DNA from: Sphaerotilus montanus
GTDB lineage: Bacteria > Pseudomonadota > Gammaproteobacteria > Burkholderiales > Burkholderiaceae_C
NCBI RefSeq assembly: GCF_013410775.1
Contig: NZ_JACCFH010000001.1
Coordinates: 1,798,001-1,862,000 of the forward strand
Length of the DNA stretch: 64,000 nucleotides
Reading direction: 5' to 3'
The notes beneath the pieces are model-generated. The model was not told the DNA's origin. It was given only the letters and a program-made list of their open reading frames with translations, and searched no databases. Each line of letters starts with the position of its first letter. Positions within the stretch are counted from its first letter, which is position 1. Of the stretch, positions 13,398 to 43,295 are shown in pieces. The translations under genes were made by a program, and so were the position numbers.

Positions 13398-14717
13398 ATG
13401 AGCCTGGAGAACCTCCGTGCGTTGCGCCGTGGTGCGCTGGCGGGCGCGCGCCGCCTGGACCTGTGCTGCGACCTGACCGCACTGCCGCCCGAGGTGTTCG
13501 ATCTCGCCGACACGCTCGAGATCCTGAACCTCACGGGCAACCGCCTGTCCACCCTGCCGGACGACCTGCCACGGCTGCACCGCCTGCGCGTGGTCTTCTG
13601 TTCGGACAATGCCTTCACCACGCTGCCTCCGGTGTTAGGAAGCTGTGGACAACTGGAGATGGTGGGCTTCAAGGCGAACCGGATCACCCGTGTGCCGCCC
13701 GAGTCGCTGCCCCCTCGGCTGCGCTGGCTGATCCTCACCGACAACGCGGTCGAGACCCTGCCCGACACCCTTGGTGCGTGCCTGCGGCTGGAGAAACTGA
13801 TGCTGGCTGGCAACCGGCTCACCACCCTGCCCGACCTGTCCGGCTGTGGAGAACTCGCGCTGCTGCGGCTGGCGGCCAACCGGCTGGAAGCGCTGCCCCC
13901 CTGGCTGCTGTCGATGCCGCGACTGGCCTGGCTGGCGCTGGCCGGCAACCAGGTTTTCCACAAGCCATCCCATGCGCGCCACAGCATGGATCTTCCACGG
14001 ATTCCCTGGGAACACCTGGTGTTCCAGCACGTGCTCGGCGAAGGAGCCTCCGGAGTTATCCACAAGGCCACATGGAAAGAAAGCGAGCGGTTATCCACAG
14101 CGGTGGCGGTGAAGCTGTTCAAGGGTTCGGTGACCAGCGATGGTCTGCCGGACAGCGAGATGGCCGCCACCATCGCTGCCGCCGGACACCCCGGTCTGGT
14201 CGGTGTGGAGGGACTTGTCCACAACCCGGCCGACCCCGTGCCGGGCCTGGTGTTGCCGTTGCTCGACTCCTCCTTCCAGGCACTGGCCGGGCCGCCGAGC
14301 TTCGCTTCGTGCAGCCGGGATGTCTATCCGGACGGATTCAGCCTGTCTGTGGACAAGTTGTTGATAATCATCCGGTCCGTGGCCGGGGCGGTGGCCCATC
14401 TGCATGCCCGTGGTCTGCTGCACGGCGATCTGTATGGCCACAACCTCCTGTGGAACGGCACGGACCGGGTCTTGCTGAGCGACTTCGGCGCCGCCTCGTT
14501 CTTCGACCCGGACGACCGCGCCACGGCCGAGGGACTGCAGCGTCTGGAGGTGCGCGCCTTCGGCTGTTTGCTGGAAGAGCTGCTGGAGGCTGTGGATAAC
14601 CCCGTGGATGCCTGCTGCGGGCCGCTCGCTGTGCTGCGGGATGCCTGTCTGCAACCGCAGGTGACGCGGCGACCGCTGTTCTCAGACCTCGTCGGGGCGC
14701 TCGCCGATCTCGGCTGA
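13398..14717 (+). CDS. Leucine-rich-repeat protein fused to a protein-kinase-like domain
   Basis: A 439-residue cytoplasmic protein. Residues about 20-190 hold seven leucine-rich repeats with the LxxLPxxL pattern. Residues about 205-439 form a kinase fold: glycine loop GEGASGVIHKATW, lysine in AVKLF, catalytic loop HGDLYGHNLL (HGD instead of HRD) and DFGAAS. Repeat-plus-kinase proteins like this are known in Burkholderiales without clear function; the retained Asp and Asn suggest catalysis is possible. The gene contains three perfect DnaA boxes (14056, 14091, 14591) and several one-mismatch boxes, some using rare TTA codons. Its 3' end overlaps convergent tapT by 36 bases. Confidence 0.85.
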   Translation: MSLENLRALRRGALAGARRLDLCCDLTALPPEVFDLADTLEILNLTGNRLSTLPDDLPRLHRLRVVFCSDNAFTTLPPVLGSCGQLEMVGFKANRITRVPPESLPPRLRWLILTDNAVETLPDTLGACLRLEKLMLAGNRLTTLPDLSGCGELALLRLAANRLEALPPWLLSMPRLAWLALAGNQVFHKPSHARHSMDLPRIPWEHLVFQHVLGEGASGVIHKATWKESERLSTAVAVKLFKGSVTSDGLPDSEMAATIAAAGHPGLVGVEGLVHNPADPVPGLVLPLLDSSFQALAGPPSFASCSRDVYPDGFSLSVDKLLIIIRSVAGAVAHLHARGLLHGDLYGHNLLWNGTDRVLLSDFGAASFFDPDDRATAEGLQRLEVRAFGCLLEELLEAVDNPVDACCGPLAVLRDACLQPQVTRRPLFSDLVGALADLG

Positions 14718-16143
14718 AGCGGCTCCGGCCTCGGCCGTGGCGGCCAGGTGGCCGACGAATCCGCCGAACGCGGACAGCAGCGGTGCGTAGCGCTCCGGAG
14801 CCTGTTCGAGTTGCGCCAGCGCGAGGCAGGTGGCTTCCAGTGTGGACAACTGGTCCGGCCGGTGCGCCTTGCGGACCGTCCCGTACTGCGAGGGCGGTGG
14901 CTCGGCCAGCGCGAGCCGCGGCAGGTGCTGCAACGCCGGGTTCAGGTGCAGCAGCTTGCGGCTCTTGCGCCAGGTGCCATCCAGCACGACCAGCTGCAGA
15001 CGTTCCGCTTCGTCCGGAATCGCTGGGTTATCCACAGTTCTGGCGGTGCCCGGATCTTCCGGATACAGCAGCACGCTGGTCCGGTTCCCTGTGTGCAACA
15101 AGGTCTCCAGATCCGCGGTGTCGAACTGCTCGCCTGTGGATAACCAGCTGTTTGCCAGACTGCGCTGCAGCAGCACGGCGCTGCCCTTGGCCTCTCCGAC
15201 TTCGCGCGGGTGCTGCAGGATCAGCACCCGGACCAGGTTATCCACAGGTCTGACCCAGCGACACAGGCAGGTGCGCAGCGGGCGGGCGCACTGTGGACAA
15301 GTCGGGCGGCGGGGATGTTCCATGGCGGACAGCGGGACGGAGCGGATTGCGCGAAGATGCCGCCATGATCGCCGTTTCCGTCCTCGACCTCGCCCCCATC
15401 GCCGAAGGCAGTGATGCCGCCACCGCGCTGCGCCACGCCCTCGACCTGGCGCAGCACGCCGAACGCTGGGGCTACCGCCGCTACTGGCTCGCGGAACACC
15501 ACAACATGGCGGGGCTGGCCTGCTCCGCCACCGCGGTGCTGGTCGGGCACATCGCGGGCGGCACCTCGACGATCCGCGTCGGCTCCGGCGGCGTGATGTT
15601 GCCAAACCATGCGCCGCTGGTCGTGGCGGAACAGTTCGGCACGCTGGCCACGCTCTACCCCGGCCGCATCGACCTCGGCCTCGGCCGCGCGCCTGGCACC
15701 GACCAGGCCACCGCACGTGCGCTGCGCCGCCACCAGCACAGCAGCGACGAGGACAGTTTTCCACAGGACGTGATGGAACTGCAGCGCTACCTCGGCGAAC
15801 CGGACGCGAGCCAGAGCGTGCGCGCGATTCCTGGGGCGGGGACGCACGTGCCGATCTGGCTGCTCGGATCGTCGCTCTACGGGGCGCAACTGGCCGCTTA
15901 TATGGGCCGTCCGTTCGCCTTCGCCTCGCATTTTGCGCCGGACATGCTGCTGCAGGCACTCGACATCTACCGCAGCACCTTCCGCCCATCGGCCAGTTAT
16001 CCACAGCCCTACGCGATGGTCGGCACCAACGTGATCGCCGCCGACACCGACGCCGAGGCACAGAAGTTATTCACATCCATCCAGCAGCGCTTCCTCGGCA
16101 TGGTGCGCAACCAGCGCGGCCCGCTGCCGCCGCCTGTGGATAA
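14056..16143. promoter_or_regulatory. Cluster of intragenic DnaA boxes (TTATCCACA)
   Basis: Eight perfect TTATCCACA nonamers lie at 14056, 14091, 15028, 15238 and 15997 (+ strand) and 14591, 15135 and 16135 (- strand). Eight one-mismatch copies are at 13644, 13954, 14215, 14348, 14841, 15292, 15757 and 16067. Only one other perfect copy was found in the window (25095). They fall in three genes and in several reading frames, so shared protein sequence does not explain them. dnaA and dnaN are not nearby, so a DnaA-titration or regulatory role is more plausible than oriC; this is inference. Confidence 0.6.
14682..15323 (-). CDS. tapT: DTW-domain tRNA-uridine aminocarboxypropyltransferase
   Basis: A 213-residue protein of the DTW family (E. 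coli TapT/YfiP), which transfers the aminocarboxypropyl group of SAM to uridine 47 of tRNA to make acp3U. The N-terminal zinc-like cluster is [13 protein letters not shown]. The signature D-x-T-W is seen as [12 protein letters not shown] near residue 110, followed by the conserved [14 protein letters not shown] chose ATG 15323 because [12 protein letters not shown] directly precedes the cysteine cluster. It converges with the LRR-kinase gene and is divergent from the LLM oxidoreductase. Confidence 0.88.
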
Positions 16144-16375
16144 CATGGATGCCCTGTGGAGCCCGGCCGAGCGCCGGCAGGTCGAGCGGATGCTGGCGGT
16201 GGCGGTGGTCGGCTCGCCCGCGACGGTGCGCGACGGGCTGCAGGCGCTGGTCGAGCGTACGGGGGCGGACGAACTCATCATCGCCGGCGCCACGCACGAC
16301 CACGCGGCGCGGTTGCGCTCCTACGAGCTGATCGCGCAGTGCGCCGCCGACGTGGTGCCCGCGGTCCGCCCTTGA
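15365..16375 (+). CDS. LLM-class (luciferase-like) flavin-dependent oxidoreductase
   Basis: A 336-residue cytoplasmic enzyme with the F-type TIM barrel of the bacterial luciferase superfamily. The hallmark segments are present: [32 protein letters not shown] and the C-terminal flavin/phosphate region GSPATV. These enzymes use FMNH2 to oxygenate small substrates; the substrate is unknown. The gene contains two perfect DnaA boxes. Its TGA abuts the stop of the convergent DUF4406-like gene. Confidence 0.88.
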
Positions 16376-19925: not shown

Positions 19926-20053
19926 GGCCTGGCATTGTGGCGATTGCCGCAGGGCCGTTGCTGGTGCAGGCCGAAAGTGCTTGGAGGCACTTGCTCACCA
20001 AGACGAAAATCACTGACTAAAGAAAAAACGGGAGCGGCTCAGGCTGGATCACA

Positions 20054-20968
20054 TTGGATGCGACACAACGCTACTGCTACGGCCTGAACTTCAAGAACGT
20101 GTTCTTGACCGAAAAAGGCAAGGCGTTCGAGAGCTTCTTCGCCCGCGTGATGACATATGGCTTCACTGGAGACTTCCAGCCTGTGCGGCCCTATGGGGCC
20201 CTGGGAGATCTGAAGTGCGATGGCTTCCGCGCAAGCGATGGAACGGTTTTTCAGTGCTACGCGCCGGACGCGATGAAGCTGGCCGATCTTCTGAAGAAGA
20301 TCGACGAAGACTTCCACGGCGCCGTTGCGCACTGGGGAGCACGGATGCAGCGCTGGGAGTTCGTTCACAACGATGTGCGCGGGCTTCCTGCGGAGGCCGT
20401 TCAGAAGCTGCAGGACTTGCGAACAGCCTATCCCGGCATCAGAACCAGCGTCTTTGGTGAGGCAGAGATGCGCAACGTGGTCATGTCGCTCGCCTTGCAC
20501 CAGCTTGAAGATCTGTTCGGTGCCGTTCCGTCGCAGAAGACTCTGGAACGGCTGGGCTTCGCTCAACTGGTCCCCATCTTGAAATTGATCAGCCGGCGGG
20601 AGCCGCCCGCCGACCCTCCGACAACGGCCCCCTCTGCTTCCAAGCTCGAAAACAATGCGCTGTCACGCGACGTGGCAGGAGCGCTGTGCCAGGGACGTCT
20701 GAGGGAAAGACTGGTTGAAGACTGCCTTGCTCAGTGGCCTGATCCCGGCTTGGGCGAGGAAGTCGCCGAGGGGTTCAGGAACCGCTATCGTGGACTCAAG
20801 GCCATCGGGTACACACCCGATGAAATCTTCGAAGACTTGCAAGAATTTGCGGGAGGCATGCGTGGCGAGCCTGCGCGCCAGGGTGCCGTCCTCGCCGTGC
20901 TGTCCTATTTCTTCGAGCGTTGCGACATCTTCGAGGATGCCAAACCAGATCCGACCCCATCACCATGA
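20054..20968 (+). CDS. ABC-3C system effector-type protein (C-terminal ABC-3C domain, nuclease-like N-terminus)
   Basis: First gene of a three-gene ABC-three-component locus; 304 residues. The N-terminal half has a pattern like PD-(D/E)xK nucleases: FESFFARVM, then GDFQPVRPYGALGDLKCDGF and TVFQCYAP, with Asp and Gln at positions usually acidic, so catalysis is uncertain. The C-terminal region (about 200-290) resembles the shared helical domain that couples ABC-3C effectors to the middle component. The start appears to be TTG 20054; the nearby ATG is out of frame. The stop overlaps the next gene as ATGA. Base use is less GC-biased than flanking genes, suggesting transfer. Confidence 0.7.
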   Translation: MDATQRYCYGLNFKNVFLTEKGKAFESFFARVMTYGFTGDFQPVRPYGALGDLKCDGFRASDGTVFQCYAPDAMKLADLLKKIDEDFHGAVAHWGARMQRWEFVHNDVRGLPAEAVQKLQDLRTAYPGIRTSVFGEAEMRNVVMSLALHQLEDLFGAVPSQKTLERLGFAQLVPILKLISRREPPADPPTTAPSASKLENNALSRDVAGALCQGRLRERLVEDCLAQWPDPGLGEEVAEGFRNRYRGLKAIGYTPDEIFEDLQEFAGGMRGEPARQGAVLAVLSYFFERCDIFEDAKPDPTPSP

Positions 20969-21213
20969 TCCTTCCCACCAAGCACATCCGGCCTGATCGA
21001 GCCTTGCTGACCGTCGGCGGGGAGATCCTCGGCTACCTGCACGAACCTGCGACCGTCTCGCGACTGTGGGATCTGGTGCGCAACGCCCGCAAAGAGACAC
21101 ATCAAGCGGCACCGATCAACTACGACTGGTTCATCCTGGCTCTGGATCTGCTTTTCATGGTGGGCGCGGTTGACCTCGACCGGGGACTTGTCCGCAAGGC
21201 CGCCGCACCATGA
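20965..21213 (+). CDS. ABC-three-component system middle component (MC6-type)
   Basis: An 82-residue protein beginning MILPTKHIRPDRALLTVGGEIL and containing SRLWDLVR and FILALDLLFMVGAVDL. This string is characteristic of the ABC-3C middle component 6 family, small winged-helix-like linkers between effector and ATPase. It overlaps both neighbours by four bases (ATGA at each end), so all three proteins should be made together. No catalytic residues are visible. Confidence 0.85.
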   Translation: MILPTKHIRPDRALLTVGGEILGYLHEPATVSRLWDLVRNARKETHQAAPINYDWFILALDLLFMVGAVDLDRGLVRKAAAP

Positions 21214-22973
21214 TCTACACCATCACCAGTGACCTTCCCAGCTTCAAGTCCCTCACGTTCAAGCCGGGGCTGAACATCCTGCTGGCGGACAAGAGTGAAG
21301 GTGCCACGGATCGCCAGTCCCGCAATGGGGCAGGCAAGACCAGTCTGGTGGAGCTGATCCACTTCTTGATGGGGGGCACCGCGGACAAGGACAGCATTTT
21401 CCGATCTGCTGCGCTGGCGCCGTGGACGTTTGAGATGTGTGCAGACATTGGGGATGCCCCTGTGAACATCGGACGTTCCGGCAGCAAGCCGTCCCGTGTT
21501 CATCTCGACGGCCCTGTGGTGAATTGGCCGGTACAACCTGAGCGAGATGCCAAGACAGGGGAATTTCAGTTCAGCAATGACCAGTGGCGACTTTTCCTGG
21601 GGCGCGTGCTCTTTGGTTTGTCCACCTCAAGCGATGAGTCCAACCATCGTTTCGGCCCCACGTTCCGATCGCTCTTTTCCTATTTCGCCAGACGCCAAAA
21701 CAGCGTAGGCATGCTGCAACCCACCCAGCACGCGGCAAAACAGCAGGCGTGGGATCAGCAGGTCGCCGTGTCCTACCTGCTGGGCCTTGATGCGCACATA
21801 CCGCAGGAATTCCAGAAACTGCGCACCGAGGAAAAAGCCATCGCCGAACTGCGCAAGGCCGCCAAGGACGGGGTGCTGGGGCGCTATTTCAGTTCGGCGG
21901 CTGATCTGCGCACGCGCGTGGTCATCACGGAAGCCCGTGTACGCCGCATGAAAGAACAGTTGGCGACTTTCCGTGTGGTGCCGGCCTACGCAGAACTGGA
22001 GAAGGAGGCTTCGACCATCACGCGGCAGATTTCATCGCTCAGTGACGAGAACACCTCGGACCGCGAACTGATCCTGCAATTACAGGATTCCCTGACGACG
22101 GAAAGCCCGCCCGCTGTCACGAGCCTGGAGCGGGTTTACCGGGAAGCCCAAGTTGTTCTACCGGACACGGTCAGCAAGCGTTTTGCAGAGATCGAGCTGT
22201 TTCATCAGGCGATCGTGCAGAACCGCAAAGCCCATCTCGGCGCGGAGATCAGTTCGGCAGAACTGCGGATCACCGAGCGAGAGCGCACGCGCGAGCAACT
22301 GGATATTCGACGCCAGCAGATCATGGGCATTCTCCAGTCAGGCGGCGCCTTGGAGCACTACGCCCTTCTGCAGGAGGAGGCCAGCCGAGCCGAGGCAGAA
22401 GCCGAGGGCTTGAAGCAGCGACTGGTCATCGCTGAGCGCATCGAGAGTACCAAGGCCGAACTGGAAATCGAGCGGGCGAGGCTGCACAAGGCCCTTCAAG
22501 AGGATCAGCATGAGCGCAGAGAGTTGATTGACGAAGCCGTTCTGATTTTTGAAGACCTGTCCAATGCGCTGTACGAGAAGGCCGGCATCCTGACCATCAG
22601 TGCCACGCACAATGGCCCCTTGGTCGAAGTGCGGATCGACTCGCAACGCAGCAAAGGCATCACCAACATGCAGATCTTCTGCTTCGATCTGATGCTGGCC
22701 GACCTGGCGACTCGTCGAGGCATGGGTCCAGGATTCCTGGTTCACGACAGCCATCTTTTTGACGGTGTCGATGAGCGTCAGATTGCCAAGGCGCTTCAAT
22801 TGGGTGCGGACCACGCCAAGGCGGTGGGGTATCAGTACATCGTGACCATGAACTCCGATGCCTTGCCCAAGGATGGATTTCGCCCTGGATTCGACATCGG
22901 AGAGTTCATTTGTCCGGTCAGGCTGACAGATGCCACCAACAGCGGCGGCCTCTTTGGTCTACGGTTCGATTAG
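21210..22973 (+). CDS. ABC-3C system SMC-like ATPase (DUF2326 type)
   Basis: A 587-residue SMC/RecF-like ATPase. The N-terminal lobe has Walker [18 protein letters not shown] near residue 45. Residues about 205-430 are predicted coiled coil. The C-terminal lobe carries the signature region and Walker-B-like segment [12 protein letters not shown]...[19 protein letters not shown], the hallmark of DUF2326. In ABC-3C systems the ATPase is thought to sense invading nucleic acid or virion components and license the effector; that role is known from comparative genomics, not shown here. It overlaps the convergent alaC gene by four bases. Confidence 0.88.
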
Positions 22974-24172
22974 TCAGCCTTGAACATCGCCTTGATGCCG
23001 CGCACCGCCTGCCGTATCCGCCCCTCGTTCTCGATCAGCGCGAACCGCACATGGTCATCGCCGTGGTCGCCGAAGCCGATGCCGGGCGAGACGCAGACCT
23101 TGGCCTTCTCCATCAGCAGCTTGGCGAATTCCAGCGAGCCCATCGCCGCATAGCGCTCGGGGATCTTCGCCCAGATGTACATCGACGCCTTCGGGCATTC
23201 GACATCCCAGCCGACCTCGCGCAGCCCCTTGACCAGCACGTCGCGGCGCTTCTGGTAGGTCGCGGCGATGTCCTTGACGCACTGCTGGTCGCCTTCCAGC
23301 GCGGCGATGGCAGCGACCTGCAGCGGCGTGAAGGTGCCGTAGTCGTGGTAGCTCTTGATGCGCGCGAGGGCGGCCACGAGGTCCGGGTTGCCGACCATGA
23401 AGCCGATGCGCCAGCCGGCCATGTTGTAGCTCTTGCTCAGCGTGAAGAACTCGACCGCGATGTCCTTGGCGCCCTTGACCTGCATGATCGACGGCGCCTT
23501 CCAGCCGTCGAAGCAGATGTCGGCGTAGGCCAGGTCGTGGACGACGAAGATGTCGTGTTTCTTCGCCAGCGCGATCACCCGCTCGAAGAAATCGAGTTCC
23601 ACGCACTGCGCGGTCGGGTTGCTCGGGAAGCCCAGCACCATCATCTTCGGCTTCGGGTAGCTGCCGCGGATGGTCTTCTCCAGCTCGGCGAAGAAGTCCA
23701 CGCCGGGCACCAGCGGCACCGAGCGGATGTCGGCGCCCGCGATCACCGCGCCGTAGATGTGGATCGGGTAGCTCGGGTCGGGCACCAGCACGGTGTCACC
23801 GCGGTCGAGCGTGGCGAGCATCAGGTGCGCCAGGCCCTCCTTGGAGCCGATGGTGACGATGGCCTCGCTGTCGGGGTTGATGTCCACGTCATAGCGGTCC
23901 TTGTACCAATGCGAGATCGCACGGCGCAGGCGCGGGATGCCCTTGCTGGCCGAGTAGCCGTGGGTGTCGGGCCTTTGCGCGACCTCGGTGAGCTTGGCGA
24001 CGATGTGCGCGGGGGTGGCGCCGTCGGGGTTGCCCATGCTGAGGTCGATGATGTCCTCGCCACGGCGGCGCGCGGCGAGCTTCAGCTCGGCCGTGATGTT
24101 GAAGACGTAGGGGGGAAGGCGATCGATGCGCGCAAAGCGGCGCTTGCCCGAAGTGGAGGCAGAGGAAGACAT
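22970..24172 (-). CDS. alaC: AlaC-type PLP-dependent aminotransferase
   Basis: A 400-residue fold-type I aminotransferase that makes alanine from pyruvate and glutamate in related bacteria. Motifs: [12 protein letters not shown] at the start, [19 protein letters not shown] and the PLP lysine in [16 protein letters not shown]. Length and order match E. coli AlaC. The start is set by an ATG directly before a Ser-rich leader. It is convergent with the ABC-3C ATPase, and a 100-base spacer separates it from the lysE pseudogene upstream. Confidence 0.88.
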
Positions 24173-24961: not shown

Positions 24962-26782
24962 TCAGCGCCGGTGGTGGCTCGGCGCCGGCTTGTACACCGG
25001 CGTCGGAATGCCCTCCATGCGCGCCTTCAACTGCAGCGACAGGAACTGCGAGTAGTGGCGCGACTGGTGCAGGTTGCCGCCATGGATCCACAGGTTATCC
25101 ACAGGCGTGGGCTTCCACATGTTGCGCAGCTCGCCCTCCCACGGCCCTGGATCCTTGGTCGTCGCCGAGCCCAGACCCCAGCACTTGCCCACCCGGTCCG
25201 CCACCTCCGGCGAGACCAGATCGGCCAGCCAGTTGTTCATCGAGCCGTAGCCGGTGGCGTAGACCAGCAGGTCGCAGGGCAGCTCGCTGCCGTCCGTCAG
25301 CGTCACCGAGGTCGGGTTGACGCGGGCGATGTCCACGCGGCTGCGCAGGTGGACGCTGCCGTTGGCGATCAGCTCGCTCGCGCCCACGTCGATGTAGTAG
25401 CCCGAGCCGCGGCGTAGGTACTTCATGAACAGCCCCGAGCCGTCCTCGCCGAAGTCGAGCATGAAGCCGGCCTCCTCCAGGCGGCGGTAGAGGTCGGCGT
25501 CGCGGCGCTTCATCTCCTCGTACACGGGGATGTGGAAGGTGTGCATGATCTTGTACGGCACCGAGGCGAAGACCAGGTCCGCCTTGTGGTGGTCGATGCC
25601 GCTGGCCACCGCCTGCTCCGAGTACAGCCCGCCGAGCGCCAGCTCCATCAGCGAGTCCGACGGCGCGATGTGCGTGGACGAGCGCTGCACCATGGTCACG
25701 TCGGCGCCGTTCTCCCACAGGTCGGCGCAGATGTCGTGCGCCGAGTTGTTCGAGCCGAGCACGACCGCCTTCTTGCCGCGCCAGGCGTCACCGCCGGGGT
25801 GCTTGCTGGAGTGGTGCTGCTGGCCGAGGAAGGTCTCGGCGCCGGGGATCTTCGGCACGTTCGCATAGCCCGACACGCCCAGCGCGAACACGAGCTGCTT
25901 CGGCCGCAGCGTCACCGGCTGGCCGTCGCGCACGACACGCACTTCCCAGCGCTGCGCGTCCTCGTCCCAGCGGGCCTTCTCGGCGACGGTGCTGCTCCAG
26001 TAGTTCAGCTCCATCAGCTTGGTGTAGCTCTCCAGCCAGTCGCCGACCTTGTCCTTGGGGCAGAACACCGGCCAGTCGTCCGGGAACGGCAGGTAGGGCA
26101 TGTGGTCGTACCAGACCGGGTCGTGCAGGCACAGGCTCTTGTAGCGGTTGCGCCAGGAGTCGCCGGCGCGGGCGTTCTTCTCGATGATGATCGTCGGCAC
26201 GCCCAGCCGCCGCAGCCGCGCGCCCAGCCCGATACCGCCCTGCCCGCCGCCGATGATGACGACCTCGGGTTGTTCTGTGTAGCCCAGCGTGGCGGCCTCG
26301 TGCTGGCGTGCTTCCAGCCAGGTCTGCCGGCCGGGGTGGACACCGTGTTCGGCGCCCTTGATGCGGCGCGTGCCCTTCTTCTCCTCGTGGCCCTTCAGCT
26401 CGACCATCGTGGTCAGGAAGGTCCACGCCAGCCCGTTCATGAGCCGCAGGTGCCCCAGGCCGCGCGCCACGGCGGTCTCGAAGGTGAACCACGCCTCGGT
26501 GATGCCGCCGGCCTCGGTGGCGTCGCCTTGCAGCTGGAAGTTCGACGGCTGCACATCGGCCAGCCGCGCGGCCAGCATCTCGTGGATGGCGCCGCGGCCT
26601 TCCTCGGTGCGGAGGTTCCAGGTGAAGCTGACGAGGTCGCGCCAGTAGCTGTCCTCGCCGAACAGCGCGGCGGCGGTGTCGGCTTGTCCGGCGGCGAGCG
26701 CGGCGGCGAAGCGGGCGAGCCAGTCGGCGGCCTGCTCCGTGGGCGTGGGGGTAGTCGTGGTGACGGTGTCCGTCGATGTCAT
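24962..26782 (-). CDS. Flavin-containing monooxygenase with N-terminal NTF2-like domain
   Basis: A 606-residue protein. Residues about 15-140 look like a SnoaL/NTF2-like cup domain. From residue about 172 a Rossmann FAD site VVIIGGGQGGIGLGARL, a flavin-monooxygenase linker (ETFLGQQHHSSKHPGG), and an NADPH site VVLGSNNSAHDI follow, with a terminal ATGY segment (VYATGYGSMNN). Such enzymes oxygenate amines, sulfides or ketones; the substrate is unknown. The start is preceded by GGAGAC. The gene contains a perfect DnaA box at 25095-25103. The sulfur-handling cassette immediately upstream may hint at a sulfur substrate. Confidence 0.85.
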   Translation of the reverse strand: MTSTDTVTTTTPTPTEQAADWLARFAAALAAGQADTAAALFGEDSYWRDLVSFTWNLRTEEGRGAIHEMLAARLADVQPSNFQLQGDATEAGGITEAWFTFETAVARGLGHLRLMNGLAWTFLTTMVELKGHEEKKGTRRIKGAEHGVHPGRQTWLEARQHEAATLGYTEQPEVVIIGGGQGGIGLGARLRRLGVPTIIIEKNARAGDSWRNRYKSLCLHDPVWYDHMPYLPFPDDWPVFCPKDKVGDWLESYTKLMELNYWSSTVAEKARWDEDAQRWEVRVVRDGQPVTLRPKQLVFALGVSGYANVPKIPGAETFLGQQHHSSKHPGGDAWRGKKAVVLGSNNSAHDICADLWENGADVTMVQRSSTHIAPSDSLMELALGGLYSEQAVASGIDHHKADLVFASVPYKIMHTFHIPVYEEMKRRDADLYRRLEEAGFMLDFGEDGSGLFMKYLRRGSGYYIDVGASELIANGSVHLRSRVDIARVNPTSVTLTDGSELPCDLLVYATGYGSMNNWLADLVSPEVADRVGKCWGLGSATTKDPGPWEGELRNMWKPTPVDNLWIHGGNLHQSRHYSQFLSLQLKARMEGIPTPVYKPAPSHHRR

Positions 26783-39660: not shown

Positions 39661-40038
39661 GTGAGGGGTTGGCGGATAGGGTGGCAGCAGTGGACGAGCG
39701 GATCAGGGCGCGGGTATGCTGGTGCTGAGCTTGGCTGCGTAACGGGTTACGCCAGCGGTGCAAGCTTTGGGGTCGTTTTTACGGGGGGCAAACCATGCAA
39801 GACAGAGAAAAACTCCAATCCCGGCGCGCACTTGTGTTCCGCTGCTCGCAAGCTGGTACGCAGCAGCAAGGTTGTTACGCCAGCAAGGTGTGACGTCGAT
39901 ATTAAGTTAGAAAAAAGCAAGGTATAATCCACGTGCAATATACTCCTACCCACTGTGGTTTCGAGATGAGAAACTGCACTAAATCCTAAAAATAATCCGC
40001 AAATTACCACAATCACACCATTTAATAATATATTCCAA
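39661..40038. other. AT-rich boundary without a gene
   Basis: Composition shifts sharply to AT-rich from about 39,880. I find no supported gene, tRNA or direct repeat; TTGTTACG/CAGCAAGGTTGTTACGCC-like words recur (around 39652 and 39871) but without clear meaning. The 150 bases before the Fic gene contain several TA-rich -10-like boxes. This is the left edge of the acquired segment. Confidence 0.4.
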
Positions 40039-40581
40039 ATGTTAAGCTTACAAAAAACAATCTATTCACTAGAAGAATCCGCGCAATCTCAAGTAATCGA
40101 AAGGTTAATAAAAATAGAAGAACGCGTTGGCACACTACGAAGTACAGGAATCATGACTGATGCCACGCTTCGCGACTATTATGGGGAGAAAAGATTTGAA
40201 CAAGTTGCTGAATCCAATGCTATCGAAGGTAGCACCCTTTCTGTCGGGGAAACAGAACTTGCAGTTTTAAAAGGTGTAACAATTTCTGGGCACGACCCCG
40301 CGTACGCGCGCGATGCAATTGCACTTGATGCGGCACTAACCAAGATTGCCGAAATTGCACGCATTAAAGATCGCCCTACTGATATTAGTCAACTCCGCGA
40401 AATTCACGCCCTTATTCTTGGCGATCGCAAAGGCGCAGGTGTATTTAGAAATGAGGAAATAATAATAACAGGATCGTCGCATCAACCTCCAAGAAACTGG
40501 TCTGAGATCATGGATCACATGGAACGATGGGAGCAATGGTCTTTAAAAAATGCAGAGCTTCCTGCACCGATTAGATCGTTA

Positions 40582-40589
40582 ATATTGCA
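40582..40589 (+). repeat. 8-bp target-site duplication, left copy (ATATTGCA)
   Basis: ATATTGCA occurs immediately left of the IS1595 element here and immediately right of it at 41635-41642. An 8-bp duplication is typical of the IS1595 family. Confidence 0.9.
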
Positions 40590-41634
40590 CCTGATTAGCA
40601 ATGATCTTCAGCAAGGCCCTAGCCGACGATCAGGCGTAGCGTAGAAGGCAGACAAAGCGCAGGAGCGAGCACATGCCGATGAACCGAATCCAGTTCCAGC
40701 AAGGGATGTCGCTGCCGGAGTTCATGAGCAGCTTCGGCACGGAAGAGCAATGCGCCGAGGCGGTCAAGCAGGCACGCTGGCCCCAGGGCTTCGAGTGCCC
40801 GCGCTGCGGCACTGCGGCGCACTACGTGGTGGGCCAGGGCGCACGCAAGCTGTATCAATGCAACGGCTGCCGCCACCAGACTTCGCTGACCGCGGGCAGC
40901 CTGTTCGCGAGCACCAAGCTGCCGCTGAGAACGTGGTTCCTGGCGATCTACCTGCTCAGCCAGGCCAAGACGGGGCTGTCGGCGCTGGCGCTCAAGCGGC
41001 AGGTGGGCGTGAGCTACCCGACGGCGTGGCTGATGCACCAGAAGATCATGCACGCGATGGCCGAGCGGGAGAGCCAGCACCGGCTCGACGGCACGGTGCA
41101 GCTCGACGATGCCTACCTCGGCGGGGAGCGCAGCGGCGGCAAGGCGGGTCGGGGTTCGGAGAACAAGGTGCCGTTCGTGGCGGCGGTCTCGGTCAATGAC
41201 CAGGGGCATCCGCAGTACGTCAAGCTCGCGCCGGTGAGCGGCTTCACGCTGGAGGCGGTGGGCCAGTGGGCGCAGGCGGCGCTGATGCCGGGAGCGCGGG
41301 TGGTCAGCGACGGGCTGGGGTGCTTCGCCGCGGTCACCAGCGCGGGCTGTCTGCACACGCCGATCGTGGTGGGGCAGCGCAAGCCGCGCGAGCTGCCCGA
41401 GTTCACCTGGGTCAACACGGTGCTGGGCAACCTGAAGACGACGTTGTCGGGTGCGTTCCATGCGTTCAAGTACCCCAAGTACGCCAGCAGCTACCTGGCA
41501 GCGTTCGCCTACCGCTTCAACCGTCGGTTCGACCTGCGCGAGTTGGTGGCTCGGCTCATCATCGATGTCTCGCGGTGCAAGCCTCGGGCTCAGCGGGTCG
41601 TTCGGGGGAATGCTGAGGATCGTTGCTAATCAGG
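40590..41634 (+). mobile_element. IS1595-family insertion sequence, complete
   Basis: A 1,045-bp element. Its ends are 24-bp inverted repeats beginning CCTGATTAGCAA with two mismatches. ATATTGCA is duplicated at 40582-40589 and 41635-41642. It encodes one intact transposase and sits in the middle of a Fic gene. The clean joint suggests a recent insertion. Confidence 0.93.
40673..41629 (+). CDS. IS1595-family transposase
   Basis: A 318-residue transposase. An N-terminal zinc ribbon (CPRCG near residue 43, CNGCRHQ near 64) precedes a DDE-type core with LDGTVQLDDAYLGGE near residue 145 and VVSDGLGCF near 205, then a NLKTTLSGAFHAFK segment. Length and order match the IS1595 family. High GC contrasts with the AT-rich Fic gene around it. 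Confidence 0.92.
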   Translation: MPMNRIQFQQGMSLPEFMSSFGTEEQCAEAVKQARWPQGFECPRCGTAAHYVVGQGARKLYQCNGCRHQTSLTAGSLFASTKLPLRTWFLAIYLLSQAKTGLSALALKRQVGVSYPTAWLMHQKIMHAMAERESQHRLDGTVQLDDAYLGGERSGGKAGRGSENKVPFVAAVSVNDQGHPQYVKLAPVSGFTLEAVGQWAQAALMPGARVVSDGLGCFAAVTSAGCLHTPIVVGQRKPRELPEFTWVNTVLGNLKTTLSGAFHAFKYPKYASSYLAAFAYRFNRRFDLRELVARLIIDVSRCKPRAQRVVRGNAEDRC

Positions 41635-41642
41635 ATATTGCA
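41635..41642 (+). repeat. 8-bp target-site duplication, right copy (ATATTGCA)
   Basis: Second copy of the IS1595 target duplication; the Fic reading frame resumes directly after it. Confidence 0.9.
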
Positions 41643-42467
41643 TGCATGGCTCACTCATATTCATCCGTATATTGATGGAAATGGGCGAGTGGCTCGTGCA
41701 ATTGGCAATCTTGAATTAATCAGAGGCGGCTATCCTCCGATAATAATCAAGAAAAAAGAACGCGATCGTTACATCGACGCATTGGGTGAGTCGGATTATG
41801 CTGGAGATATTCGATCATTTGCCGAATTGGTTTTTGAACGAATTGAAGGTGCCTTAATAGGTTTAGAATCTTCTGCGCGGAGAAAGCAGGATTATAATCC
41901 AATAATAGAACGGCTTCGCGCGCAACAAGAGCAGCAACTAAAAATCTGGTCTACCAGTGTTATGCAACTAGCAGACATCATCAAATACAAGATATCTTCA
42001 AAAATTGAAGAACTTGGCGGCAAATGCACAATCAAAAATTTCGATGCTCTTGATTTGGTTGACTACATTTCTTTGTCCAACAACAGTAGCGTTGCAAGAA
42101 GCTGGGCATTTATTGTGACGGTAACCATACCTGGATTTGAGAAATTTGAAAAACTGGCTTACATAATTAATCGTAGCCAATTAATGAGAAAATCATTCAA
42201 AGATCAAGGAGGTCCATCAATTCAGTGGTCAAGCCCTAACCCAACGGGGTTTCCAAAATGGATTGCAGACGGGGAAAAATTCCCCTCTTGCATAGAAGCG
42301 TCAACATCGCCAGTTGATGGTAATGAATGGTTTGTTAGAAATTCACAAGATAAGATAACAAAAATTGGAACGATGAATTTGGCAGAAAATTTAGCAAATT
42401 CACTTCTTAATGCTATTTTGGAAAAATCAGAATAAATTTCTAACTTGCCGTTGCATCTGATGCCCCA

Positions 42468-42499
42468 AAATGCCCACTACCTGGCGGTAGTGGGCATTT
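42468..42499. terminator. Perfect 14-bp hairpin after the Fic gene
   Basis: AAATGCCCACTACC (42468-42481) pairs perfectly with 42486-42499 around TGGC. A-run on one side and T-run on the other make it usable as a terminator in both directions. It separates Fic from the next gene. Confidence 0.8.
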
Positions 42500-42527
42500 C
42501 GTGTCGCAGGTGAACTTTAGCCATCAC

Positions 42528-43295
42528 ATGAATCACCCTCCTGTCTTCTTATTCACCCGTCTCGTTCGGACCGCATCAAGCGAATCTCACATAATAAGGC
42601 GACCGTCAAACCGTCCGGATTCCACCGTCAATATCGGCTCACTGGATCTACATTTCGAGAATAGGCTGATTCACGGAACGCTAGTCATTGAGCAGCCGCT
42701 TGGCGAAGATGAGTTGGATCGGCTGATAACACAGATGACGGATCAGTTGATTCCAACAGAACGGGATGACTTCATCTTCACAGCATTCGCCGGCACGGAA
42801 ATCGGCTTCTATTCGGACGCTGTCTCCGAAAGTGAGCGGCAGCAACACTCAGCAACCAAAGCAGATGTTCTGGATATACGAAACTCGCTCGCCAAGGTAC
42901 TTGGCAGTCATCAGAATGCGCGGGGCAAGGTAGCAGAACACGCAGTCGTGGCCTATTTCACATCGCTTGGCTACGAAAGCAGCAGAGCAGGCTCCGAGCT
43001 TGATGCGCTAAAGATAGACGTAGTTGCTTCCAACGCGGCCGAGACTATCTACGTCCAGTCCAAATTGGGCAATATAGCGGCGTCAGAGATGCGAAAAGTA
43101 ATTCAAGCAGTCGCGGCACTGCCTCGCACGGGCAGCAAGAAAGTCATTGCTGCAATTGTGGCCCGCACCTTTCCAAAGGACAGCGAGCACACCCGCCTGA
43201 AATTGGAGTCCGAGTTTGGTTTGCCAGTCCTCTGCATCCAGTCATACCAGATTGCGGCGGCGACGCCAGAGTTTCGGCACGCACTCGGCGAGTGA
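42528..43295 (+). CDS. Restriction-endonuclease-like (PD-(D/E)xK superfamily) hypothetical protein
   Basis: A 255-residue protein. The C-terminal half has GKVAEHAVVAYFTSLGYESSRAGS, ALKIDVVA and TIYVQSKLG, the spacing of an Mrr-like PD-(D/E)xK fold with Glu, Asp and QxK replacing ExK; activity is therefore uncertain. The N-terminal half has no motif I know. A GTG 27 bases upstream is also in frame. Base use is intermediate, consistent with the accessory island. A defence role is possible but unproved. Confidence 0.6.
   Translation: MNHPPVFLFTRLVRTASSESHIIRRPSNRPDSTVNIGSLDLHFENRLIHGTLVIEQPLGEDELDRLITQMTDQLIPTERDDFIFTAFAGTEIGFYSDAVSESERQQHSATKADVLDIRNSLAKVLGSHQNARGKVAEHAVVAYFTSLGYESSRAGSELDALKIDVVASNAAETIYVQSKLGNIAASEMRKVIQAVAALPRTGSKKVIAAIVARTFPKDSEHTRLKLESEFGLPVLCIQSYQIAAATPEFRHALGE

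What the first reader, a model, noticed from the sequence alone, without database searches (positions are those of the whole stretch)
14056..16143. Dense cluster of perfect DnaA boxes inside three genes, with no dnaA nearby
Eight exact TTATCCACA sites (five on +, three on -) occur in 2.1 kb, plus eight one-mismatch sites from 13644 to 16075. Only one other perfect copy was found in the rest of the window. Base composition alone would predict about 0.1 per 64 kb, by rough calculation. Sites lie in different reading frames of the LRR kinase, tapT and the LLM gene, and some force rare codons (TTA in RLSTAV at 14091, TTA in the near-match at 16067), so codon choice seems bent to keep the box. A datA-like DnaA-titration locus or another replication-control site would fit.
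Basis: partly seen in the sequence, partly recalled or inferred. Interest (0 to 1): 0.8.

Follow-up and report, generated by a model that had tools for sequence, protein, structure and literature searches.

The report
DnaA-box cluster flanking displaced replication origin
Three ordinary protein-coding genes about 26 kb from this bacterium's predicted chromosome origin carry a dense set of binding sites for the replication initiator DnaA, apparently kept by selection on the DNA itself, and they probably act as a sponge that helps limit replication to once per cycle.

Summary
In detail: eight exact TTATCCACA sites in 2.1 kb (37 in the whole 5.07 Mb genome; reversed-word control 2), plus five TTGTCCACA, all inside three genes. 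Synonymous-codon shuffling never reproduces them (0 of 1000; mean 0.17). Six congeners carry the cluster, five sites being filled in all seven species; the other six congeners have no box in the 20 kb around tapT, and 0 of 80 kinase homologues elsewhere have one. GC skew turns at about 1.78 Mb, on an intergenic region (C1:1785425-1785992) with an AT-rich stretch, TAGTAG repeats and a DnaA box. This core is seen in 11 of 13 genomes of the genus, 460 kb from dnaA here. The cluster lies 26-28 kb right of it; two further intragenic clusters lie 15 and 26 kb left. Best reading: origin-flanking DnaA-binding (titration) clusters written into coding sequence, closer to B. subtilis oriC-proximal DnaA-box clusters and E. 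coli's origin-proximal enrichment than to datA. DnaA binding and any effect on initiation are inferred, not shown.

The parts
13398..14717 (+). LRR-kinase gene (leucine-rich repeats plus protein kinase domain), host of part of the box cluster
   Evidence: Pfam LRR_8, PK_Tyr_Ser-Thr, Pkinase
14682..15323 (-). tapT-like DTW-domain gene, host of five TTRTCCACA boxes
   Evidence: Pfam DTW 2.8e-48 (on a slightly longer reading); matched in 13 of 13 genomes of the genus; boxes
15365..16375 (+). LLM (luciferase-like) flavin oxidoreductase gene, host of two exact boxes and two near-boxes
   Evidence: Pfam Bac_luciferase 1.6e-40 (on a longer reading); start re-read
14056..14064 (+). exact DnaA box TTATCCACA; codons V-I-H-K; exact in all 7 box-bearing species
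14091..14099 (+). exact DnaA box TTATCCACA using a TTA codon (L-S-T); TTGTCCACA in G005, TTACCCACA in G004
14591..14599 (-). exact DnaA box (A-V-D-N); shared with G004 only
15028..15036 (+). exact DnaA box in tapT (codes TVDN in a linker); exact in G004, G005, G007, TTTTCCACA in G001, G006, G010; the 6 box-less species lack these residues
15135..15143 (-). exact DnaA box in tapT using a TTA codon (L-S-T); exact in G004, TTATGCACA in G005
15238..15246 (+). exact DnaA box in tapT (codes PVDN); TTRTCCACA in 7 of 7 box-bearing species, PT.. residues in the 6 others
15997..16005 (+). exact DnaA box in LLM gene (SYPQ), kept in G004 and G005
16135..16143 (-). exact DnaA box in LLM gene (PVDN), kept in G004 and G005
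13644..13652 (-). TTGTCCACA box, identical in all 7 box-bearing species
14215..14223 (+). TTGTCCACA box (TTATCCACA in G004, TTGTCCACA in G005)
14348..14356 (-). TTGTCCACA box, identical in all 7 box-bearing species
14841..14849 (-). TTGTCCACA box in tapT, kept in G004 and G005
15292..15300 (-). TTGTCCACA box in tapT, kept in G004 and G005
13954..13962 (+). TTTTCCACA near-box; a TTNTCCACA form at this column in 6 of 7 species (TTATCCACA in G006)
13845..13853 (-). TTCTCCACA near-box (TTGTCCACA in G004, TTCTCCACA in G005)
14359..14367 (-). TTATCAACA near-box; TTRTCCACA at this column in G001, G006, G007, G010
14354..14366 (-). single strict IHF-consensus match (WATCAANNNNTTR), overlapping a box and a near-box
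15757..15765 (+). TTTTCCACA near-box in LLM gene, kept in G004 and G005
16067..16075 (+). TTATTCACA near-box with a TTA codon, the same in G004 and G005
25095..25103 (+). isolated exact DnaA box, 37 kb from the predicted oriC

Best explanation
The cluster is an array of DnaA-binding sites embedded in three protein-coding genes, one of three such intragenic clusters within 30 kb of the predicted chromosome origin. Shown by sequence: the boxes exist beyond chance, are kept at DNA level in a seven-species group within the genus, and flank a predicted oriC that is far from dnaA. Inferred: DnaA binds them, and because they are copied soon after initiation they double the number of strong DnaA sites at once, lowering free DnaA at oriC and damping re-initiation (initiator titration). 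[quoted passage not shown]
For: Word enrichment: 37 exact copies genome-wide against 2 reversed; 28 of 69 chromosomal TTRTCCACA sites lie within 30 kb of the oriC core. Synonymous shuffles: 8 seen against mean 0.17, 0 of 1000 in G000; for TTRTCCACA 0 of 1000 shuffles reach the count in each of the 7 box-bearing species. Five box columns filled in 7 of 7 species and one in 6 of 7, the varying base being mostly position 3. Codon identity inside boxes 0.92-0.95 against 0.68-0.73 outside among G000, G004, G005. PVDN in tapT only in box-bearing species. 0 of 80 outside kinase homologues with a box. Exact boxes genome-wide: 14-39 in the seven box-bearing genomes, 4-7 in the six others. oriC: skew turn, core of TAGTAG and box seen in 11 of 13 genomes. 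DnaA domain IV keeps GGRDHTTV as in 1J1V (E. coli origin of 1J1V recalled). Precedents: B. subtilis DnaA-box clusters, E. coli origin-proximal boxes.
Against: No binding or initiation data. Six congeners lack the cluster around tapT and evidently live without it. Hda, another brake on initiation, is matched in 13 of 13 genomes (7 over the curated cut-off, 6 under it at 178.7-192.5 of 194.8 bits), so titration is not obviously needed. Between the two box-bearing groups, codons inside boxes are no more alike than outside (G000-G001 p=0.8, G000-G007 p=0.32); within the second group two of three pairs are only suggestive (p 0.057, 0.095). GC skew is clear in G000 and, with noise, G001, but irregular in G009 and G012 and offset by about 30 kb in G003.
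Confidence: 0.67

Rival explanations
1. datA-like locus: the cluster binds DnaA-ATP and, with IHF, speeds its hydrolysis to DnaA-ADP after passage of the fork.
For: Many boxes near oriC; one strict IHF-consensus match between a box and a near-box at 14354-14366.
Against: The IHF match overlaps both and the place is a DnaA box in four of seven species; the cluster is coding, spread over 2.5 kb, with sites that differ between clades; datA needs fixed box2-IHF-box3 spacing (passages).
Confidence: 0.12
2. DnaA reservoir or remote recruitment: the clusters hold DnaA near oriC and help load it, by looping or local supply, so they promote initiation (DARS-like in sign).
For: The oriC intergenic region of G000 holds two TTNTNCACA matches in 750 bp while the flanks are rich; in G001 the block has another place relative to its left neighbour but still lies 50-52 kb from oriC.
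Against: Box-less congeners G011 and G012 have as few boxes at oriC (one TTNTNCACA each in 750 bp); no contact data.
Confidence: 0.1
3. The boxes regulate transcription of the kinase, tapT and LLM genes.
For: DnaA is a known transcription factor (recalled; also PMC4447404 abstract), and the dnaA upstream regions of this genus carry two boxes.
Against: Sites are spread through coding bodies on both strands; similar clusters sit in unrelated genes (UPF0176/rhodanese, pseudouridine synthase, transaldolase, alcohol dehydrogenase) whose common property is nearness to oriC.
Confidence: 0.05
4. A word bound by some other protein, for example for folding or segregating the origin region, that resembles the DnaA box.
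For: Of the ten one-mismatch sites, eight differ at position 3 and only one at position 5, unlike the E. coli rule TTWTNCACA; all eight exact sites follow a G and seven of eight precede a G, a longer word than the box.
Against: The same word stands upstream of dnaA and in the oriC core of several congeners, and DnaA domain IV keeps the contact-region sequence of 1J1V.
Confidence: 0.06

Closest known systems
Bacillus subtilis oriC-proximal DnaA-box clusters (DBCs; Okumura et al. 2012, seen only through passages of PMC5295017 and PMC13220808)
   Same: Several DnaA-box clusters outside oriC; removal of all six gives early initiation, read as sensitivity to free DnaA.
   Different: In the B. subtilis table seen in PMC4447404 (passages) the six strongest regions outside oriC (peaks 3-8) are intergenic; here the clusters lie in coding bodies. 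That those peaks are the six DBCs was not checked. Function not tested here.
Origin-proximal DnaA-box enrichment in E. coli (PMC12371093: abstract, section 6 and passages seen)
   Same: Boxes concentrated around oriC, read as favouring titration soon after initiation.
   Different: There a broad rise counted in windows of 10 centisomes with about 900 boxes per genome by their motifs; here a few compact intragenic clusters in a box-poor genome, 28 of 69 TTRTCCACA within 30 kb of oriC.
E. coli datA (passages of PMC4585315, PMC5295017, PMC12371093)
   Same: Multi-box DnaA-binding locus away from oriC.
   Different: datA is non-coding and IHF-dependent with set spacing; neither is met here.
Bacterial basal origin unwinding system (DnaA boxes plus DnaA-trios; passages of PMC8287927)
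   Same: The predicted oriC next door has a box, a short spacer and TAG repeats beside an AT-rich stretch.
   Different: Concerns the origin 26 kb away, not the cluster; the cluster has no TAGTAG and at most 46% AT over 80 bp.

Membership tests
oriC-proximal DnaA-box cluster (DBC type) | several DnaA boxes close together outside oriC | tested here: met
   8 TTATCCACA and 5 TTGTCCACA in 13644-16143
oriC-proximal DnaA-box cluster (DBC type) | lies near oriC | tested here: met
   25.9-28.4 kb from the predicted oriC core (core)
oriC-proximal DnaA-box cluster (DBC type) | DnaA binds it | not testable with these tools
   needs ChIP or a binding assay; DnaA domain IV resembles 1J1V
oriC-proximal DnaA-box cluster (DBC type) | its loss advances initiation | not testable with these tools
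   needs mutants
datA | IHF site between boxes 2 and 3 at set spacing | tested here: not met
   one strict IHF-consensus match overlapping a box; that place is a DnaA box in 4 of 7 species
datA | non-coding locus | tested here: not met
   boxes inside three Pfam-supported genes
datA | stimulates DnaA-ATP hydrolysis | not testable with these tools
   biochemistry needed
oriC (the cluster itself as origin) | AT-rich unwinding element with DnaA-trios beside a box | tested here: not met
   best 80-bp AT content 46%, no TAGTAG or CTACTA; these features are at C1:1785687-1785766 instead
oriC (intergenic C1:1785425-1785992) | GC-skew minimum | tested here: met
   G000 and G001; not clear in G009 and G012, offset in G003
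oriC (intergenic C1:1785425-1785992) | AT-rich element, TAG repeats and DnaA box, conserved | tested here: met
   TAGTAG followed by a box or near-box read by eye in 11 of 13 genomes; AT content over 80 bp 0.62-0.68 in most, only 0.53-0.55 in G011 and G012
oriC (intergenic C1:1785425-1785992) | replication starts there | not testable with these tools
   needs marker-frequency data

The most novel reading that the evidence does not exclude
A genus whose oriC lies apart from dnaA has, in one branch, placed much of its DnaA-binding capacity in the reading frames of unrelated genes on both sides of the origin, so that protein sequences (PVDN, LST, YPQ residues) are shaped by a replication-timing code. 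The clusters would work together with a box-poor oriC as a split, long-range initiation control centre.
Probability: 0.15. Interest if true: 0.85.

Novelty: new variant of a known kind. Interest (0 to 1): 0.66.

Why it matters
Whether DnaA is titrated on the chromosome, and how much that matters beside ATP/ADP switching, is a long-debated question. Here a natural contrast exists: seven species of one genus with an intragenic, origin-flanking DnaA cluster and six without it in the same gene neighbourhood, all with an Hda match. Because the sites are in coding DNA, they can be removed by synonymous recoding without deleting promoters or genes, which makes titration directly testable. It is also a clear case of DNA-level selection reshaping proteins.

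Tried and rejected
Considered and rejected: chance or base composition; a property of the LRR-kinase family (0 of 80 outside homologues with a box; the 80 are those kept of 580 matched, and gene ends were approximated for most of them); the cluster as oriC; the dnaA locus as oriC (no TAG repeats and at most 57% AT over 60 bp upstream of dnaA in the 8 genomes read, of which G009 had only 72 bp; G001 and G010 gave no start there, and G004, G005, G007 were not fetched); strand bias of exact boxes with replication (19 of 37 co-directional).

Led nowhere: dif search with a consensus recalled from memory (0 hits), so the terminus rests on skew alone; the trio pattern across the genus matched only G000 and G001, so the other nine cores were read by eye; G002 and G008 show no oriC core beside the SET gene. 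The tree of tapT and SET was poorly resolved and did not group the box-bearing species (deep supports 35-45); adding part of DnaA gave support 87 (13 species, DnaA missing for four) and 85 (nine species) for box-bearing against box-less. The genus is not named by any tool; a 505-base plasmid match to Sphaerotilus is only a hint. Papers with Sphaerotilus and oriC: none held. Listings for DnaA boxes in coding sequence showed nothing to the point in the held library; Okumura 2012 itself is not held.

Errors corrected: the LLM protein was translated in a wrong frame (also used); positions were redone for the seven box-bearing species only, so LLM neighbours of tapT in the six others were not properly searched. 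One search picked reading frames near clusters A and B that searches replaced. It also gave cluster A a counterpart in G004, which the calls do not show. The confidence was lowered by 0.01 and one rival raised by 0.01 for these.
Full report
OBSERVATION. The nonamer TTATCCACA occurs nine times in the window, eight times between 14056 and 16143. In the whole genome (5,068,925 bases, 3 contigs; window = C1:1798001-1862000) the word occurs 37 times and its reversed form twice. If 37 sites are scattered at random, no 2.1-kb stretch holds more than 3 in 2000 trials.

GENES. The sites lie in an LRR-kinase gene, a DTW-domain (tapT-like) gene and a luciferase-like flavin oxidoreductase gene. They use several frames: V-I-H-K, L-S-T, A/P/T-V-D-N, S-Y-P-Q. 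Three of the four TTA codons of the three genes are in boxes or near-boxes. With codons shuffled among synonymous positions, the three genes give on average 0.17 exact boxes (maximum 2 in 1000), against 8 seen; for TTRTCCACA 0.44 (maximum 4) against 13. In the six relatives that carry the cluster, 0 of 1000 shuffles reach the TTRTCCACA count in each, and for the exact word 1 of 1000 in G001 and 0 of 1000 in the five others.

RELATIVES. tapT is found in 13 of 13 genomes of the genus. In seven (G000, G001, G004, G005, G006, G007, G010) the three genes are adjacent and the block holds 10 to 16 sites of the form TTNTCCACA (the G007 contig is cut off). In G001, G006, G007 and G010 the LLM gene itself has none (G007 partial). 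In the six others no such site stands in the 20 kb around tapT; the kinase gene was seen there only in G009, 7 kb from tapT and without a box. Exact boxes in the whole genome number 37, 39, 27, 14, 16, 14 and 20 in G000, G004, G005, G001, G006, G007 and G010, and 4 to 7 in the six others (G007 is 68% and G005 83% complete). In the codon alignment five box columns are filled in 7 of 7 box-bearing species and one in 6 of 7; others belong to one clade. What varies is mostly the base at position 3. tapT reads PVDN at one such site in all seven and PT.. in the six others, and a second VDN/VEN stands in a linker that the others lack. Within the G000-G004-G005 group, unchanged amino acids keep the same codon inside boxes in 92-95% of cases and outside in 68-73% (33 to 39 same of 35 to 41 codons inside; Fisher p 0.0003-0.004). 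In the second group the three pairs give p 0.009, 0.057 and 0.095. With boxes defined in a third species, five of six comparisons give p<0.02 and one 0.07. Between the two groups there is no excess (p 0.8 and 0.32). This is expected if A/G swaps at position 3 are free, but it is a result against simple constancy. Kinase homologues outside the genus: 0 of 80 contain TTATCCACA or TTGTCCACA in 104,755 bases. A tree of tapT, SET and part of DnaA separates box-bearing from box-less species with support 85-87; tapT and SET alone did not.

WHERE IS THE ORIGIN? dnaA sits at C1 about 1.325-1.327 Mb, in what reads by eye as the usual mnmE-yidC-rnpA-rpmH-dnaA-dnaN order, some 485 kb from the cluster. GC skew in 43 stretches is negative up to about 1.77 Mb and positive from about 1.79 to 4.2 Mb, with exceptions at 1.36, 1.85 and 1.90 Mb, then negative again. 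Origin and terminus are thus about half a chromosome apart, with dnaA well inside one arm. Fine skew is lowest between 1.780 and 1.786 Mb. In relative G001 the skew, noisier, is lowest at about 159 kb of contig C1, in sequence colinear with that place. Both minima fall on or beside one intergenic region, between a periplasmic-binding-protein gene and a SET-domain gene: C1:1785425-1785992. It contains an AT-rich stretch (68% over 80 bp; stretches sampled in this genome are mostly 65-72% GC), ATAGATAGTAGATAGTAGTAG, a GC stretch and TTTTTTGTGCATAAC, a DnaA box on the minus strand, with a strict IHF-consensus match 18 bp on (tested in G000 only). This is the order box, short spacer, DnaA-trios described for bacterial origins (passages of PMC8287927). 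TAGTAG followed by a box or near-box stands upstream of the SET gene in 11 of 13 genomes, read by eye; the AT-rich stretch is weak in G011 and G012; G002 and G008 have no such core there. Upstream of dnaA there is only a pair of boxes and no such core in the genomes that could be read. parS-like sites (recalled consensus) lie by genes that read as mnmG, rsmG and parA at 1.948-1.951 Mb, 165 kb from this origin and 620 kb from dnaA. Against: skew in G009 and G012 is irregular and in G003 the turn lies some 30 kb off.

THE CLUSTER IN ITS SETTING. Of 69 TTRTCCACA sites on the chromosome, 28 lie within 30 kb of the oriC core, 1.2% of its length (one further TTGTCCACA on contig C2 left out). They form the present cluster (C, +25.9 to +28.4 kb), cluster A (1759290-1760184, -26 kb; UPF0176/rhodanese and pseudouridine-synthase genes) and cluster B (1769387-1770853, -15 to -16 kb; the main run in an alcohol-dehydrogenase gene, beside a transaldolase gene), plus single sites. 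B has a counterpart with the same spacings in G004 and G005, A in G005. In G001 the three-gene block has another place relative to its left neighbour, 50-52 kb left of oriC, still with its boxes, and more TTGTCCACA sites stand at about 145 and 152-158 kb.

MECHANISM. Shown: a set of DnaA-box words far above chance, kept at DNA level, clustered on both sides of a predicted oriC. Inferred: DnaA binds them (domain IV keeps the GGRDHTTV of 1J1V). Inferred: their early duplication lowers free DnaA just after initiation. In B. subtilis removal of six clusters outside oriC advances initiation (review passages; Okumura 2012 not read), and E. coli concentrates boxes near oriC, read as titration (PMC12371093 abstract and section 6). 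Hda is matched in 13 of 13 genomes, so any titration acts beside RIDA.

FILING. It works like the B. subtilis type of cluster in position and make-up; the functional tests of membership could not be made. It is not filed as datA: two defining features were tested and not met. The variant part is the coding location: in B. subtilis the six strongest regions outside oriC are intergenic (table in passages of PMC4447404). Nothing of this kind in this genus appeared in the listings, in an open-licence library only.

Noticed in passing
C1:1785425-1785992 of the window's genome (L034:15425-15992), 12 kb left of the window: Predicted oriC apart from dnaA (460 kb here; about 156-294 kb in G003, G009, G010, G012 from the coordinates, G009 taken as circular), seen beside a SET-domain gene in 11 of 13 genomes of the genus; G002 and G008 lack it there.
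   Followed up: yes
L033:9290-10184 and L034:455-853 (C1:1759290-1760184 and 1770455-1770853): Two further intragenic DnaA-box clusters left of oriC; the second has counterparts in G004 and G005, the first in G005.
   Followed up: partly
C1:1892405/1892419 and C1:1971515/1971527; G010:C35:149688/149700: Tandem pairs of exact boxes 12-14 bp apart, roughly one helical turn; possible DnaA-regulated promoters.
   Followed up: no
C1:1774387-1775594 and 1783240-1784127: Two inverted copies of what reads by eye as an IS transposase gene flank an 8-kb stretch next to oriC; an inversion there could blur the fine GC skew.
   Followed up: no
window 20001-23000 and 40001-43000: GC drops to 0.58-0.60 and 0.45-0.58 against about 0.70 around, suggesting acquired DNA.
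   Followed up: no
G001:C1:105445-108438 against G000 C1:1811409-1814336: The kinase-tapT-LLM block has a different place relative to its left neighbour yet lies within about 52 kb of oriC.
   Followed up: partly
dnaA upstream regions of G000, G002, G003, G006, G008, G011, G012: Two boxes 60-61 bp apart in opposite orientation just upstream of dnaA in all seven read in full, fitting DnaA autoregulation.
   Followed up: partly
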